A stretch of 64,000 bases of DNA from an uncultured Anaerolineae bacterium. Lineage in GTDB: Bacteria; Chloroflexota; Anaerolineae; Aggregatilineales; Phototrophicaceae. The translations under genes were made by a program, and so were the position numbers. The stretch is from assembly GCA_934216615.1 (NCBI GenBank), contig CAKQCB010000001.1, positions 744,001 to 808,000 on the forward strand, given 5' to 3'. The notes below the pieces were generated by a model. It was not told where the DNA came from, ran no database searches, and saw nothing but the letters and a program-made list of their open reading frames with translations. Below are positions 15,010-18,965 of this stretch, one piece after another (the first letter of the stretch is position 1; every line of letters begins with the position of its first letter).

Positions 15010-16209
15010 TTACTCCACAGAAGCCAACATGGCCGTTAATTTTTCGATGAGGACATCAACATGCGACTTTTCAATCACCAACGGGGGCACAAAACGAATG
15101 ACATCCGTCCCCGCGTTGACCATCAACAACCCTGCTTCATAGCCCTTCTCGATGAACGGCGCAACATCGACGGTTAGTTCTAAACCCACCATCAAGCCTT
15201 CACCGCGAACATCTTTAAGCAGAGGGCTGTTGATCTCTGACAAGCGTTCTTTTAAATACGTTCCGACTTCGCTCACATGCTCAAGGAATTGAGGTTGATT
15301 GATGCGGTCAAAGACATACTTCGCCACGCTCGTGATGAACGGCCCCCCGCCAAATGTTGTGCCATGATCGCCGGGTTGGATATGCTGAGCAATCGCGTTC
15401 GTGGTCAAAATAGCGCCAATCGGCAAACCGCCAGCGAGAGGTTTCGCTAAGGTCATGATATCCGGCGTGACCCCGCTGTGTTGATGTGCCCACAATTTCC
15501 CTGTGCGCCCCAACCCGCATTGAATCTCGTCAAAAATCAGGGCTGCATCAAATTGATTGCACAGCTCACGCAGGGTTTGTAAAAACTCGGGCGTGGCGGC
15601 ATGAATCCCGCCTTCCCCTTGGATCGGTTCGACAAACACCGCCGCCGTATTTTCACCGATGACAGCGCGCGCGCTGTCGATGCTGTTGAATTCCCCTAAT
15701 ACAGCGCCTGCCATCAAAGGCTTGAAAGGCTGTTGATATTTTTCTTTGGGGGTGAGCGCTAATGCGCCCATCGTCCGACCGTGAAACGCGTGGGTGAAGC
15801 TGACGATCTCAGTCTTGTGAGGGTTACCTTTGGCAATCGCGGCTTTACGCGCAAATTTGATCGCCCCTTCGTTGGCTTCCGCCCCGCTGTTACTAAAGAA
15901 GACCCGTTCGGCAAATGAATTTTCCACCAACGCCGACGCGAGTTCCGCTTGGGGCGCGGTGTAATAGAGATTGCTGGTATGGAGTAACCCACCGCCAGCG
16001 CTTTGAATCGCGTTTTGCAAACCGACATCGTTATAGCCCAAGGCGTTGACAGCGATCCCCGCCACCCAATCAAGATAGGCTTTGCCGTCTGTGTCATAAA
16101 CAACCACCCCATCACCGCGTTCAAGGACAAAAGGAGGACGCTTATACGATTGAACAACGTTCTCATTTTCTAAAGTGATGATTGGGTTTGTTTGTGGTTC
16201 TAGCGTCAC
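15010..16209 (-). CDS. argD: acetylornithine aminotransferase
   Basis: A class III PLP aminotransferase of 399 residues that converts N-acetylglutamate semialdehyde to N-acetylornithine. Visible: 'GDGVVVYDTDGKAYLDWVAGIAVNALGY', 'FFSNSGAEANEGAIKFARK' (phosphate-binding loop), 'FTHAFHGRTMGAL', 'FVEPIQGEGGI', 'LIFDEIQCGLGRTG' (PLP-binding Asp) and 'LAKPLAGGLPIGA' with the Schiff-base Lys near residue 252. The start is GTG 16209, placed 8 bases after GAGGAG. It follows the HNH-like gene by 57 bases and runs directly into argJ. Confidence 0.95.
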   Translation of the reverse strand: MTLEPQTNPIITLENENVVQSYKRPPFVLERGDGVVVYDTDGKAYLDWVAGIAVNALGYNDVGLQNAIQSAGGGLLHTSNLYYTAPQAELASALVENSFAERVFFSNSGAEANEGAIKFARKAAIAKGNPHKTEIVSFTHAFHGRTMGALALTPKEKYQQPFKPLMAGAVLGEFNSIDSARAVIGENTAAVFVEPIQGEGGIHAATPEFLQTLRELCNQFDAALIFDEIQCGLGRTGKLWAHQHSGVTPDIMTLAKPLAGGLPIGAILTTNAIAQHIQPGDHGTTFGGGPFITSVAKYVFDRINQPQFLEHVSEVGTYLKERLSEINSPLLKDVRGEGLMVGLELTVDVAPFIEKGYEAGLLMVNAGTDVIRFVPPLVIEKSHVDVLIEKLTAMLASVE

Positions 16210-16266: not shown

Positions 16267-16872
16267 CTACTTTTGTTCTTGAAACTTCGACCAACCTAAG
16301 CGTTCTTCCACCCAACTTTGCGCGCCTTTTGCACCATCAACCCAACCATGTTGCGCTTCGTAACGAATGGTCGCTAAACACCAACTCAACACTTTTTCGA
16401 TGACCGTAACAGGGACTTGCCCCGAATTCATCACATGTTGGATGATGCTTTGGCTGTAATCCGACGACTTCACCAGCGCGTTATAGATCAAGTGGTGCAG
16501 TTCGTGACAGTTAGCACACAACTGCAAGGTCACTTGGTTTTCCCCATGGGTTGCCACATCCCACAAATGATGCCGATGGGATGAGGGGTATCCACACGCG
16601 CTACACGGGGTTTTGCGTTCTTTCACCGTAGGCCGTCGGCGTTTCTTCAACCGACGATATTCTTGTAAACGATAGAAATCCGTCCAATATTCGATCACCT
16701 CTAAGCGTTCACTCGTTTTTGTGTAAGCTGTTAATACAGCGTCAAACGAAGCGGTGATTTCATCCCCTTGTTTGCCGGGGAATAAGTCCCGTACCAAGGT
16801 ATATAACGCGGTTTGTGCTTCATCCACACGGGTTGTATCGGGTATCTTTTCTAATTGCTTCTTTTTCGCCAT
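16267..16872 (-). CDS. HNH-endonuclease-like protein inside the arginine operon
   Basis: A 201-residue basic protein unrelated to arginine synthesis. Its centre has a zinc-type HNH arrangement: 'PCSACGYPSSHRHHLWD' followed by 'LQLCANCHELHHLIYNAL', that is CXXC, HxHH, CXXC and HH. This matches HNH nucleases in which the second CXXCH.LHH closes the beta-beta-alpha-metal fold. The flanks are helical and charged, with 'RRLKKRRRPTVKERK' before the motif suggesting nucleic-acid contact. Its ATG lies 15 bases after argB with a TAGGGG-type ribosome-binding site, so it is co-transcribed with the arg genes. Activity and target are unknown. It could also be a structural zinc protein. Confidence 0.6.
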   Translation of the reverse strand: MAKKKQLEKIPDTTRVDEAQTALYTLVRDLFPGKQGDEITASFDAVLTAYTKTSERLEVIEYWTDFYRLQEYRRLKKRRRPTVKERKTPCSACGYPSSHRHHLWDVATHGENQVTLQLCANCHELHHLIYNALVKSSDYSQSIIQHVMNSGQVPVTVIEKVLSWCLATIRYEAQHGWVDGAKGAQSWVEERLGWSKFQEQK

Positions 16873-16887
16873 CAGGAATACCCCTAC

Positions 16888-17640
16888 TCACTGACTTATA
16901 ACGGTCCCGCCATGCGATAACAGGCCGACCAAGTTGGTGATGACAACATTCTTCACGCCACTTTCTAAGGCGTGTAAAGCCGTGTTCACCTTCGGAATCA
17001 TGCCGCCGAAAATCGTGCCGTTTTCAATCAAGGTGCGGATATCTGCCTTTTGTAAGGCAGGCAGTAAATTGCCGTCTTGTAATACACCTTCGACATTGGA
17101 TAAAAAGATCAAGCGGTCTGCGTCGATTTCAGCGGCGATTGCCCCTGCCACATGGTCGGCATTGACATTGAGATTCGATTCTTCCCCGTAACAGATCGGC
17201 GCTATCACGGGAATGGTGCGTTGCGATAAGATATCAAACAAAACTTGAGAACGTACCGTAACGACTTCCCCTGTAAAGCCCATGTCTTGGGTTGGGTGTA
17301 CCATCTTCTGAGCACGAACCATCCCTCGATCCACGCCTGAAAGCCCGATGGCATCTATGCCCGCTTGGTATAACGTGCGCACCAAACGTTTATTCACAGA
17401 CCCGCATAAAACCATCTCAACCAATTGTAAGGATTCCGCATCCGTCACGCGGATACCGTCCACATACTTCGGTTGTATCTTCATCTTTTCTTGCAGTGCG
17501 GTGATCTCTTTGCCACCCCCATGCACAATCACCACCGAGTGCTGAATCTGCTTGATGACCACGGCCAACTGCTGCAAAAATGCATCATCATCCAATTCAT
17601 GACCACTTATTTTGATTAACCAACGCGATAATAAATTCAT
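16888..17640 (-). CDS. argB: acetylglutamate kinase
   Basis: Phosphorylates N-acetylglutamate, the second arginine step. The 250-residue protein has the amino-acid kinase fold: 'VVIVHGGGKEIT' near the N-terminus, 'VDGIRVTDAESLQLVEMVLCGSVNKRLV', 'VIAPICYGEESNLNVNADHVAGAIAA' and 'DRLIFLSNVEGVL', ending with 'GGMIPKVNTALHALESGVKNVVI'. It is slightly shorter than many ArgB proteins and lacks an obvious N-terminal extension of the kind used in arginine-inhibited hexameric forms, so feedback inhibition may be weak (inference). It starts 14 bases after argC, with GAGGTA upstream. Confidence 0.95.
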   Translation of the reverse strand: MNLLSRWLIKISGHELDDDAFLQQLAVVIKQIQHSVVIVHGGGKEITALQEKMKIQPKYVDGIRVTDAESLQLVEMVLCGSVNKRLVRTLYQAGIDAIGLSGVDRGMVRAQKMVHPTQDMGFTGEVVTVRSQVLFDILSQRTIPVIAPICYGEESNLNVNADHVAGAIAAEIDADRLIFLSNVEGVLQDGNLLPALQKADIRTLIENGTIFGGMIPKVNTALHALESGVKNVVITNLVGLLSHGGTVISQ

Positions 17641-17654
17641 GGGTCATACCTCGA

Positions 17655-18665
17655 TTACAGTAAGGCGGTCGTTTCCGGTAACCCAACCATTAGATTAAAA
17701 CATTGTACGGCTTGTCCAGATGCGCCTTTGCGCAGGTTATCTGTCACACTGGTGATGTGAACGAACTGATCGGCGACAGGGGTGATGCTGATCGCACATC
17801 CATTGGTGCGAACAACATGTTTTAATGTCGCTTGCTGGCCTGTCGGAAGCACTTTCACAAACGGTTCACTCTGATAAGTTTCTGCATATAACGCCTGAAC
17901 TTGATCGCTCTGCATTGTGTCGTTCAAATGCACGTAGATGCTCGCCATCAAACCACGATCAACAGGCAAAAGATGCGGGACAAAGATCACGTTGCCCGCT
18001 TCTGGAGCCAACTTTTGAATTTCTTGTTCAATTTCACCGACGTGGCGGTGTACTCTGCCCGGACTATACGGGGAAAAATTGCTATACACTTCCACGAAAT
18101 GCAAGTTGGGTTTAGGCTCACGTCCAGCGCCAGAAACGCCTGACTTGGCATCGACCACAATCGGCTGACCTACCGATAAAGCATGCGTTTTTAGCAGTGG
18201 GTACAAACCGAGTAAGGTCGTTGTTGGGTAACACCCGGGGGAAGCAATCACACGCTGACCCGCAATGTGCGCGCGATTAAATTCCGGTAAACCATAGACA
18301 ACAGGTAAAAGATGAGGGGCGGGATGTTCGTGGTTATACCATTGTTTATAAGATTCAGGGGTGGTTAAGCGTAAGTCAGCAGAGAGGTCAACGACGATTT
18401 TACCCGCGTCAAGCGCTTTCGCGGCGTATGTGGCCGATGCAACATGCGGTAACGCTAGGAAAACCACATCCACAGCATCCAGCGACACTTGATCGTGAGG
18501 TACATACGCTAAGGATGAAAAAGGAATTGACTGACCCGCATACGTCGATGATGTCCCAAAAACAAGCTCGACATGGGGATGCTTGGCTAAAATTTCGACC
18601 AAATCTTGGCCTGCATAGCCAGAAGCTCCAAAAATCCCTACACGATATTTTACACCTGTTGTCAT
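17655..18665 (-). CDS. argC: N-acetyl-gamma-glutamyl-phosphate reductase
   Basis: NADPH-dependent third step of arginine synthesis, 336 residues. The Rossmann start 'VGIFGASGYAGQDLVEIL' is clear. The active-site cysteine lies in 'ASPGCYPTTTLLGLYPL' (Cys near residue 145), followed by 'DAKSGVSGAGREP', and the catalytic His is in 'RVHRHVGEIEQEI'. It is the first structural gene of the arg-car run. Its ribosome-binding site GAGGAGGGG (18668-18676) abuts the U-tract of the attenuator terminator, so transcription into argC is decided immediately upstream. Confidence 0.96.
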   Translation of the reverse strand: MTTGVKYRVGIFGASGYAGQDLVEILAKHPHVELVFGTSSTYAGQSIPFSSLAYVPHDQVSLDAVDVVFLALPHVASATYAAKALDAGKIVVDLSADLRLTTPESYKQWYNHEHPAPHLLPVVYGLPEFNRAHIAGQRVIASPGCYPTTTLLGLYPLLKTHALSVGQPIVVDAKSGVSGAGREPKPNLHFVEVYSNFSPYSPGRVHRHVGEIEQEIQKLAPEAGNVIFVPHLLPVDRGLMASIYVHLNDTMQSDQVQALYAETYQSEPFVKVLPTGQQATLKHVVRTNGCAISITPVADQFVHITSVTDNLRKGASGQAVQCFNLMVGLPETTALL

Positions 18666-18676
18666 ATCCCCTCCTC

Positions 18677-18719
18677 AAAAAAAATCCCCCGACCTCTCCA
18701 CAAAGTAGAGGTCAGGGGA
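18677..18719 (-). terminator. attenuator (intrinsic terminator) in the arg leader
   Basis: On the minus strand a 13-bp stem (18719-18707 with 18697-18685) encloses a 9-base loop and contains a single mismatched pair. It runs into eight uninterrupted T residues (18684-18677). It is located between the leader reading frame and the argC ribosome-binding site. The 5' arm can alternatively pair with an upstream leader segment (see the antiterminator entry), which makes it a conditional terminator rather than a simple end of transcription. Confidence 0.9.
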
Positions 18720-18782
18720 TTGCTCAGCGAATTTTAACGGTGGAAATCACATCGCTAATAGCAAAAATCCCATCATGACCTC
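18708..18782 (-). promoter_or_regulatory. antiterminator pairing in the arg leader
   Basis: Leader bases 18782-18776 (GAGGTCA) are perfectly complementary to 18714-18708 (TGACCTC), the core of the terminator 5' arm. Bases 18771-18766 (GGGATT) are complementary to 18721-18716 (AATCCC). The two helices (7 and 6 bp) stack across a 4-by-1 internal loop, giving a 13-pair antiterminator that uses the same bases as the terminator stem. The upstream half lies inside the leader frame, 12 bases after the last codon of the Arg run, which is the geometry needed for ribosome-controlled switching. Confidence 0.8.
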
Positions 18783-18875
18783 ATTGGTCTGCGGGCGACG
18801 GCTACGACGACGCAAAACTTCCACAAATAGATGCACAGTAAATCCATACTGAATAAAACACTTCAACTCAAACAT
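18747..18875 (-). CDS. arginine leader peptide (attenuation), start codon uncertain
   Basis: The maximal frame is 42 codons (ATG 18875 to TGA 18749-18747). Codons 22-27 read Arg-Arg-Arg-Ser-Arg-Arg (CGT CGT CGT AGC CGT CGC, 18812-18795). It sits directly upstream of the attenuator and antiterminator of the arginine operon, as expected for a ribosome-stalling leader. The best promoter has its -10 one base upstream of the ATG at 18875, so that ATG is probably not transcribed. GTG 18836 or GTG 18824 (29 or 25 codons) are likelier starts, although neither has a clear Shine-Dalgarno sequence. A different-frame 24-codon ORF (ATG 18847 to TGA 18773) with three scattered Arg codons overlaps it and is the alternative. 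Confidence 0.65.
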   Translation of the reverse strand: MFELKCFIQYGFTVHLFVEVLRRRSRRPQTNEVMMGFLLLAM

Positions 18876-18876
18876 G

Positions 18877-18905
18877 ATTTTAGAGAACTTCTTATAACCT
18901 GTCAA
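18877..18905 (-). promoter_or_regulatory. sigma70 promoter of the arg-car operon
   Basis: The minus strand has TTGACA (18905-18900), a 17-base spacer and TAAAAT (18882-18877): a perfect -35 and 5 of 6 in the -10. Transcription should begin near 18870, giving a leader of about 205 bases before argC. A second, weaker -10 (TATAAG, 18896-18891) without a -35 would start slightly upstream. Confidence 0.8.
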
Positions 18906-18965
18906 TTTCAGATTTAAGTCCGATTTTTTCTAATCAGGATTTTGTCAATAGACATATACTTTTCA

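What the first reader, a model, noticed from the sequence alone, without database searches (positions are those of the whole stretch)
18677..18905. Ribosome-mediated arginine attenuator in front of argC
In one short stretch the minus strand holds a TTGACA-17-TAAAAT promoter, a reading frame with five Arg codons in six (18812-18795), a segment 12 bases later (18782-18766) complementary in 7+6 pairs to the 5' arm of a terminator, a 13-bp terminator stem with eight T residues, and then the argC ribosome-binding site. All parts of a trp/his-type attenuator are present in the right order, and the two structures are mutually exclusive because they share the terminator 5' arm. Arginine operons are usually controlled by ArgR/AhrC repressors, so a leader-peptide attenuator for arginine in a Chloroflexota-like genome would be uncommon and may be undescribed.
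Basis: partly seen in the sequence, partly recalled or inferred. Interest (0 to 1): 0.92.

Follow-up and report, generated by a model that had tools for sequence, protein, structure and literature searches.

The report
Arginine leader-peptide attenuator before argC
In front of its arginine-making genes this Chloroflexota-like bacterium carries what looks like a small RNA switch that senses arginine by how fast a ribosome reads a run of arginine codons, and related bacteria that lack the usual arginine repressor carry the same kind of switch.

Summary
Upstream of argC, on the minus strand, lie a near-consensus promoter, a short frame with an Arg-codon run, competing antiterminator and terminator helices, and argC's ribosome-binding site. 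23 of 26 close Anaerolineae/Chloroflexi relatives carry it before argC; in 20 of 24 leaders the last Arg codon lies exactly 15 nt before the antiterminator. Elsewhere in Chloroflexota I accept it in 29 of 70 genomes examined (from a 400-genome sample; 19 of the 29 partly by eye). In 13 of the 26 close relatives a second Arg leader precedes argG. ArgR was found in 0 of 26 relatives and 0 of the 29, against 97 of the other 371 sampled genomes. No Rfam family matches; nine full-text searches of an open-access library showed no arginine-specific attenuator of arginine biosynthesis. So: a textbook mechanism with an apparently undescribed specificity. Nothing was measured. Equilibrium folding of the complete leader does not switch in most leaders (the window's stays in the terminator form), so switching would have to be kinetic.

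The parts
18900..18905 (-). -35 hexamer TTGACA
   Evidence: (11 of 12 promoter match)
18877..18882 (-). -10 hexamer TAAAAT, 17-nt spacer
   Evidence: similar promoter layout in relatives
18747..18836 (-). leader ORF, GTG start, MHLFVEVLRRRSRRPQTNEVMMGFLLLAM*, 29 codons
   Evidence: frame conservation. Translation not shown; start codon inferred
18795..18812 (-). regulatory codon run CGT CGT CGT AGC CGT CGC
   Evidence: Arg-rich run in relatives
18786..18794 (-). region 1 (CCGCAGACC); GACC pairs with region 2 (anti-antiterminator)
   Evidence: pair counts; early fold
18766..18782 (-). region 2, antiterminator 5' side GAGGTCA-TGAT-GGGATT
18708..18721 (-). region 3: antiterminator 3' side and terminator 5' arm AATCCCCTGACCTC
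18683..18696 (-). region 4: terminator 3' arm GAGGTCGGGGGATT
18677..18684 (-). U-run of the intrinsic terminator
18668..18676 (-). argC ribosome-binding site GAGGAGGGG
   Evidence: by inspection
17655..18665 (-). argC, N-acetyl-gamma-glutamyl-phosphate reductase
   Evidence: Semialdhyde_dh domains
16888..17640 (-). argB-like amino acid kinase
   Evidence: PF00696
16267..16872 (-). unassigned 201-aa ORF between argB and argD
   Evidence: no Pfam family above its cut-off
15010..16209 (-). argD-like class-III aminotransferase
   Evidence: PF00202
13806..15008 (-). argJ
   Evidence: PF01960
12602..13735 (-). carA
   Evidence: PF00988, PF00117
9337..12555 (-). carB-like (recognised by eye; not scanned)

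Best explanation
A ribosome-mediated transcription attenuator specific for arginine, controlling argC and probably the co-directional argB-argD-argJ-carAB genes. Transcription starts near 18870 (inferred) and a ribosome begins the leader ORF at GTG 18836 (inferred). With enough Arg-tRNA it passes the Arg run, region 1 pairs with region 2, region 3 stays free, the 3:4 terminator forms and RNA polymerase stops near 18677. When Arg-tRNA is scarce the ribosome stalls with the last Arg codon (18797-18795) in the A site. It then covers region 1; region 2 is free and pairs with region 3 as soon as that is made, before the terminator's 3' arm exists, so transcription goes on into argC. SHOWN: the parts, their conservation, pairing, geometry and gene association. 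INFERRED: translation, stalling, kinetic capture, termination and the arginine response.
For: Order and parts. Conservation: 23 of 26 relatives. Coding: Arg frame open from a start through region 2 in 23 of 24 (22 placed correctly by the script, L019 by eye), other frames 2 and 1 of 24. Pairing: own partners beat random re-pairing in all but 3, 0 and 0 of 5000 permutations for 2:3, 3:4 and 1:2; terminator 94.6% of cells paired, 12 double-change cells, 0 of 500 shuffles as high in either or in score; 1:2 85% paired, 11 double-change cells, 1 of 500 shuffles as high. Geometry: an Arg (CGN) codon exactly 15 nt before region 2 in 20 of 24; masking a ribosome there takes mean early 1:2 probability from 0.87 to 0.00 and, before the 3' arm is made, 2:3 from 0.63 to 0.97. 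Second unit: Arg leaders before argG in 13 of 26 genomes, different sequence, same logic. Different amino acid, different codons: two leaders before a branched-chain aminotransferase-like gene carry Leu/Val/Ile. ArgR: 0 of 26. Wider phylum.
Against: No expression data. At equilibrium the finished leader does not switch: mean P(3:4) 0.73 free and 0.76 stalled, window 1.00 and 1.00; stalling tips it to 2:3 in only 3 of 24 (L006, L016, L022), and in 3 others (L004, L018, L025) the free RNA prefers 2:3 and the stalled one the terminator. With a ribosome at the stop codon 2:3 is only partly blocked (mean 0.55; window 1.00). Before the 3' arm is made, 12 of 24 free RNAs already have 2:3 at 0.9 or more. 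Antiterminator covariation is weak (3 double-change cells, shuffles mean 2.3). In 1:2 the outer pair fails in 11 of 24, and the counts of pairs with double changes (193 of 500 shuffles as high) and of pair types (171 of 500) are unremarkable. A looser antiterminator shuffle test passed (z < -2) in only 10 of 37, and my terminator finder failed in 17 of 54. The window's likely start is GTG with no clear Shine-Dalgarno by eye.
Confidence: 0.87

Rival explanations
1. The leader encodes an arrest peptide: the nascent chain senses arginine directly in the ribosome tunnel (like the fungal arginine attenuator peptide, recalled) rather than by slow decoding.
For: Within the close relatives the C-terminal RRPxTxEVxxGFL is fairly conserved, and an Arg-Arg-Pro motif recurs in many distant leaders.
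Against: The conserved E-V and G overlap nucleotides needed for helices 1:2 and 2:3. Many leaders of other clades keep little beyond the Arg tract. In L025 the ORF stops right after the Arg run. The argG leaders have a different C-terminus.
Confidence: 0.06
2. A small-molecule riboswitch or an arginine T-box, with the Arg run a coincidence.
For: Highly conserved nucleotides around regions 1 and 2.
Against: No Rfam family reaches gathering in the window, nor in 20 related loci apart from one tRNA; the conservation is explained by Arg codons plus pairing; the Arg frame is kept open; argG leaders share the Arg run but little else.
Confidence: 0.03
3. A plain constitutive terminator after an unrelated short ORF, with regulation, if any, by a DNA-binding repressor.
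For: A short Arg-rich ORF plus terminator occurs in 19 of 1422 (overlapping) background windows; the finished leader does not switch at equilibrium.
Against: 22 of 26 close argC upstreams pass the same strict detector, against that 1.3% background and 0 of 54 more distant argC loci; conserved, partly covarying alternative helices would not be expected; ArgR was found in 0 of 26 relatives, though other repressors were not sought.
Confidence: 0.04

Closest known systems
trp/his/leu/thr/ilv/phe leader-peptide attenuators (classical attenuation; Rfam Trp, His, Leu, Thr leaders)
   Same: Leader ORF with regulatory codons, 1:2, 2:3 and 3:4 helices, intrinsic terminator before a biosynthetic operon.
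   Different: Arginine codons and arginine genes; in Chloroflexota; no match to any Rfam family. PMC3766115 (passages) had only His, Leu, Thr and Trp attenuator motifs from Rfam and suggested a possible gammaproteobacterial origin.
Salmonella speF leader, orf34 (PMC6386406, passages including the abstract)
   Same: Consecutive Arg codons in a leader ORF; ribosome pausing under low arginine changes RNA folding.
   Different: Controls ornithine decarboxylase; uses Rho, RBS sequestration and RNase G, no rho-independent terminator found there; not arginine biosynthesis.
S. aureus rbfL uORF (PMC13009471, passages including the abstract)
   Same: Arg codons in a leader ORF sense arginine.
   Different: Acts on translation initiation of rbf by covering its RBS; no terminator/antiterminator in the passages seen; lowers expression when arginine is low.
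cysS uORF attenuator, uORFC-8-2 (PMC8632094, passages)
   Same: Leader ORF with regulatory codons and a predicted intrinsic terminator.
   Different: Cysteine codons, cysS gene, Rhodobacterales.
Arginine control by ArgR/AhrC (recalled) or by arginine T-boxes (cited in PMC1262725, passages)
   Same: Feedback control of arginine genes.
   Different: ArgR not found in the relatives; no T-box match. PMC1262725 saw no conserved RNA structure upstream of arginine operons in Actinobacteria.

Membership tests
Ribosome-mediated (trp/his-type) transcription attenuator | short leader ORF rich in codons of the amino acid made by the operon | tested here: met
   five Arg codons in six before argC; frame conservation
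Ribosome-mediated (trp/his-type) transcription attenuator | intrinsic terminator between leader ORF and first gene | tested here: met
   the simple pattern scan missed it
Ribosome-mediated (trp/his-type) transcription attenuator | antiterminator that shares the terminator 5' arm | tested here: met
   (87.9% of cells paired); weak covariation
Ribosome-mediated (trp/his-type) transcription attenuator | anti-antiterminator hairpin overlapped by the ribosome stalled on the regulatory codons | tested here: met
   masking fold (footprint of 12 nt from the A-site codon assumed)
Ribosome-mediated (trp/his-type) transcription attenuator | ribosome position decides between antiterminator and terminator | tested here: inconclusive
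   seen in partial transcripts, not at equilibrium in most finished leaders; a ribosome at the stop blocks 2:3 only partly
Ribosome-mediated (trp/his-type) transcription attenuator | leader ORF is translated | not testable with these tools
   needs ribosome profiling or a fusion
Ribosome-mediated (trp/his-type) transcription attenuator | read-through rises when the charged cognate tRNA falls | not testable with these tools
   no expression data
Rfam leader families (Trp, His, Leu, Thr) | covariance-model score at or above gathering | tested here: not met
   the permissive search of 18640-18960 gave 10 matches, all below gathering and to other families
T-box leader (RF00230) | T-box covariance-model match | tested here: not met
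   no match
ArgR/AhrC regulon | an ArgR protein in the genome | tested here: not met
   PF02863 in 0 of 26 relatives' genomes, rings in 8 of 14 controls. The window's own genome is not held, so this is by kinship
Arrest peptide of the fungal AAP kind | conserved nascent-chain sequence independent of RNA pairing | tested here: inconclusive
   clade-level conservation overlaps RNA helices; Arg-Arg-Pro recurs

The most novel reading that the evidence does not exclude
Leader-peptide attenuation is an old, general way of controlling amino-acid genes in Chloroflexota: an arginine regulon (argC operons and, in many, a separate argG unit) run by Arg-codon leaders in place of ArgR, with branched-chain leaders of the same build beside it. 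In much of the phylum the leader ORF is leaderless, starting at or within a few bases of the transcript's 5' end, so the sensing ribosome loads as RNA polymerase leaves the promoter.
Probability: 0.45. Interest if true: 0.75.

Novelty: new member of a known kind. Interest (0 to 1): 0.64.

Why it matters
Arginine biosynthesis in bacteria is usually described as controlled by ArgR/AhrC or T-boxes (recalled; T-boxes also). A branch of a phylum with no detectable ArgR that uses a leader-peptide attenuator would add a new amino acid and a new phylum to this classical mechanism. PMC3766115 (passages) suggested that amino-acid attenuators may have arisen in gammaproteobacteria; a broad Chloroflexota set, with argC and argG units whose leaders differ in sequence but share the logic, makes independent origin or deeper antiquity directly testable. 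Predicted leaderless leader ORFs would also be an unusual way to couple the sensing ribosome to RNA polymerase.

Tried and rejected
Frame B (ATG at 18847, MDLLCIYLWKFCVVVAVARRPMRS*) looked like a rival leader because it ends in region 2; that frame is open from a start in only 2 of 24 leaders, so rejected.

Antiterminator shuffle test over all leaders: only 10 of 37 at z < -2 and 12 of 37 within 5%; no terminator was found by my finder in 17 of 54. G-rich against C-rich segments pair well even when shuffled, so I rely on partner-swap and pair counts, but this counts against a strong claim for every single leader.

First masking run took a wrong 'last Arg' in several leaders; the stalled values were redone with the Arg-Pro codon for partial transcripts and for finished leaders. 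In L013 and L019 no such codon exists and 15 nt was assumed. One search is kept only for the free and at-stop values.

R1 matches read and set aside as chance: G400, G292, G033, G372, G072, and G007, G012, G023 and two in G005 at E 0.01-0.07. Permissive argC-detector hits set aside on reading: G407, G210, G038, G274. The same detector rang in 19 of 33 argG upstreams; I accept 12 and set aside 7 (G016, G025, G008, G007, G010, G168, G114).

Automatic placement errors: the Arg-codon count leaves out L019 and depends on automatic location; the run of L019 was misplaced; the argG region-3 arms of G017, G011 and G005 were cut wrongly, so that partner-swap test (37 of 5000) is rough.

Whole-window search for other leader ORF plus terminator pairs gave no other convincing attenuator.

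Full report
WHAT IS THERE. The minus strand from 18905 to 18665 was read base by base. It holds, in order: TTGACA-17-TAAAAT; a frame MHLFVEVLRRRSRRPQTNEVMMGFLLLAM* (GTG 18836 to TGA 18747) with CGT CGT CGT AGC CGT CGC at 18812-18795; GACC (18789-18786); GAGGTCA-TGAT-GGGATT (18782-18766); AATCCCCTGACCTC (18721-18708); GAGGTCGGGGGATT (18696-18683); eight T; GAGGAGGGG; argC. The 231-nt RNA folds far better than shuffles (z -4.47, 0 of 200). The promoter scores 11 of 12; the tool's terminator pattern found none, which I report against it. Downstream on the same strand lie argC, argB, an unassigned ORF, argD, argJ, carA and carB (carB and the operon by inspection).

CLOSE RELATIVES. One scan with ArgC kept the best 80 of 180 relatives; 26 (L001-L026, 60-75% identity) are Anaerolineae, Aggregatilineales, Anaerolinea or Chloroflexi by title. 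I call this set the close relatives. 23 of 26 carry the element before argC; L007, L021 and L026 do not and were dropped before alignment. Alignment A1 is the window plus 23. The leader peptide reads roughly RRRRSRRPxTxEVxxGFLR* in most; L019 and L024 have weaker runs, and L025 stops immediately after its run.

PAIRING. Named-structure counts on A1. Helix 1:2 (5 pairs): 85.0% of 120 cells paired, 21-45% when slid; 11 double-change cells (1 of 500 shuffles as high), including two G-C to A-U; but the outer pair fails in 11 of 24, and two other measures are ordinary (193 and 171 of 500 shuffles). Antiterminator (11 pairs): 87.9% of 264 cells, mostly invariant or G-U, 3 double-change cells against 2.3 in shuffles. 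Terminator (7 pairs): 94.6% of 168 cells, 12 double-change cells, 0 of 500 shuffles as high in score, pairing or double-change cells (77 of 500 for number of pairs changed). Re-pairing arms between genomes weakens them: 3, 0 and 0 of 5000 permutations do as well for 2:3, 3:4 and 1:2. Relatedness inflates these numbers. The antiterminator often extends by a third helix (such as TTTTGCG with CGCAAA) in the duplexes.

READING FRAME AND GEOMETRY. The Arg frame is open from an ATG or GTG through region 2 in 23 of 24 leaders (L019 by eye, because the script misplaced its run; L025 ends before region 2), the two other frames in 2 and 1. In 20 of 24 a CGN Arg codon lies exactly 15 nt before region 2 (exceptions L013, L019, L024, L025). 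A ribosome with that codon in the A site, assumed to cover 12 nt from the codon's first base and everything upstream, hides region 1 and leaves region 2 free: mean early 1:2 probability falls from 0.87 to 0.00, and 2:3 before the 3' arm exists rises from 0.63 to 0.97, with 22 of 24 at 0.9 or more against 12 of 24 unmasked; in the window 0.67 to 1.00. Arg codons of the leaders are CGT or CGC in 124 of 127, against 246 of 349 in the argC genes (L019 left out).

LIMITS OF THE FOLDING. The finished leader does not switch at equilibrium: mean P(3:4) is 0.73 free and 0.76 stalled, 1.00 and 1.00 in the window; stalling favours 2:3 in 3 of 24 (L006, L016, L022), while in 3 others (L004, L018, L025) the free RNA favours 2:3. 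In many relatives the value stays near 0.83, which fits one bulged base of the six counted (by inspection of the alignment). A ribosome at the stop codon blocks 2:3 only partly (mean 0.55; window 1.00), and the window's stop lies 33 nt after the start of region 2, against 24 nt in 14 of 23 relatives. The model therefore rests on folding order during transcription, as recalled for trp, and the release arm is the less certain part for the window.

THE SAME LOGIC BEFORE ARGG. Model R1 from A1 found the 23 training sites in the 26 genomes and one new strong site, in G024 (E 1.4e-6), which lies before argG. All 53 genomes tested have argG. I read the upstream of argG in 26 of 26 close relatives (G024, 25) and in 8 others (G170, G397, G410, G334, G168, G069, G114, G192). 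13 of 26 have an Arg leader (for example LTRRIRRRRTCSESGG) with its own terminator and, in most, a complementary upstream segment; G008, G002 and G010 keep a terminator but few or no Arg codons; 10 have nothing like it; none of the 8 others was accepted. In several other genomes argG lies about 3-8 kb from argC on the same contig and strand (positions), so it may share the argC leader. Partner-swap on the argG leaders: 37 of 5000 for 2:3, 0 of 5000 for 3:4. Model R2, from the argG leaders, also recognises argC leaders in 8 of 26 genomes at E 8e-10 to 4e-5.

A NATURAL CONTROL. R2 also rang about 3 kb past the argG leader in G013 (E 1.2e-7) and G005 (5e-7), and weakly at the like place in G008 and G015, which I did not read. 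In G013 and G005 a leader ORF rich in Leu, Val and Ile (MSTDRRALSLSLISLTLVLVIIGGLFGLGW*; MSSKRNLSVTLNLIIVVIVLVLIIGGL*) and a terminator precede a branched-chain aminotransferase-like gene after an argH-like gene (genes named by eye). Different genes, different codons, same build.

WIDER CHLOROFLEXOTA. In a 400-genome sample of the phylum (stricter filters, which lose weak matches) R1 matched 15 genomes at E 0.01 or less. On reading 10 are argC leaders: G003 and G024, which had helped build R1, and G170, G397, G306, G104, G136, G069, G128, G060. ArgC is found in 345 of 400 (list cut). I fetched the argC upstream of the 60 next-best listed genomes, skipping G046 (four stretches are short at contig ends). 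A permissive detector rang in 23 of 60; on reading I accept 19, for example RRFRRPGRTGLEG* and RYPRRPRMVAPDDVSG*, the latter with CCAGAC/GTCTGG and TGTGTCTGG/CCAGACACA. A stricter detector rings in 14 of 60, in 22 of 26 close relatives, in 0 of 54 more distant argC loci (three of them Chloroflexota by title) and in 19 of 1422 overlapping background windows. So 29 of the 70 genomes examined are accepted, 19 of them partly by eye. These 70 have the ArgC most like the window's in the sample, so this is not a prevalence.

ARGR. PF02863 matches 0 of 26 relatives' genomes and 97 of 400 in the sample. None of the 29 accepted genomes has it, against 97 of the other 371 (Fisher p 2e-4, not corrected for kinship). 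Of the 41 fetched genomes without an accepted leader, 2 (G321, G401) have ArgR and 39 have neither, so absence of ArgR does not predict the attenuator.

LEADERLESS STARTS. In 12 of 13 argG leaders and 21 of 27 argC leaders outside the close relatives, the in-frame ATG lies 6-10 nt after the -10 hexamer, so the predicted transcript begins at or within a few bases of the start codon; in the window and its close relatives the first in-frame ATG or GTG lies 19-40 nt after it in 16 of 24 and 12-16 nt in 6, with 2 unresolved. Promoters are pattern matches, not mapped.

LITERATURE. Nine full-text searches listed no paper that, by title and abstract start, describes an arginine-codon attenuator of arginine biosynthesis; one search was loose and listed 12 of 1,288 papers. 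I read passages only of PMC8632094, PMC13009471, PMC6386406, PMC3766115 and PMC1262725; PMC2965389 held none of my six terms. Most subscription papers and preprints are not in the library, so novelty is likely, not proven. No Rfam family matches.

VERDICT. By sequence evidence the element is built like a trp/his-type attenuator and meets the anatomical features of that kind; translation, the kinetic switch and the arginine response remain to be shown. It is a new member of a known kind, with a specificity and a phylum for which I found no earlier description.

Noticed in passing
L251:1501-1655 (+) and L252:1501-1643 (-), genomes G013 and G005: Leu/Val/Ile-rich leader ORF plus terminator before a branched-chain aminotransferase-like gene, after an argH-like gene: a probable branched-chain attenuator.
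   Followed up: partly
argG leaders in L198-L216; argC leaders in L110, L113-L118 and most of L133-L161: Leader ATG 6-10 nt after the -10 hexamer: predicted leaderless leader ORFs.
   Followed up: partly
window 16267-16872 (-): A 201-aa ORF with several Cys and His in its middle sits between argB and argD; no Pfam family above its cut-off.
   Followed up: no
L200 (G008), L214 (G002), L217 (G010): argG upstream regions that keep a terminator but have few or no Arg codons: possible decaying attenuators.
   Followed up: no
genomes G264, G144, G007, G021, G026: Neither ArgR nor an Arg leader before argC was found; how arginine genes are controlled there is open.
   Followed up: no
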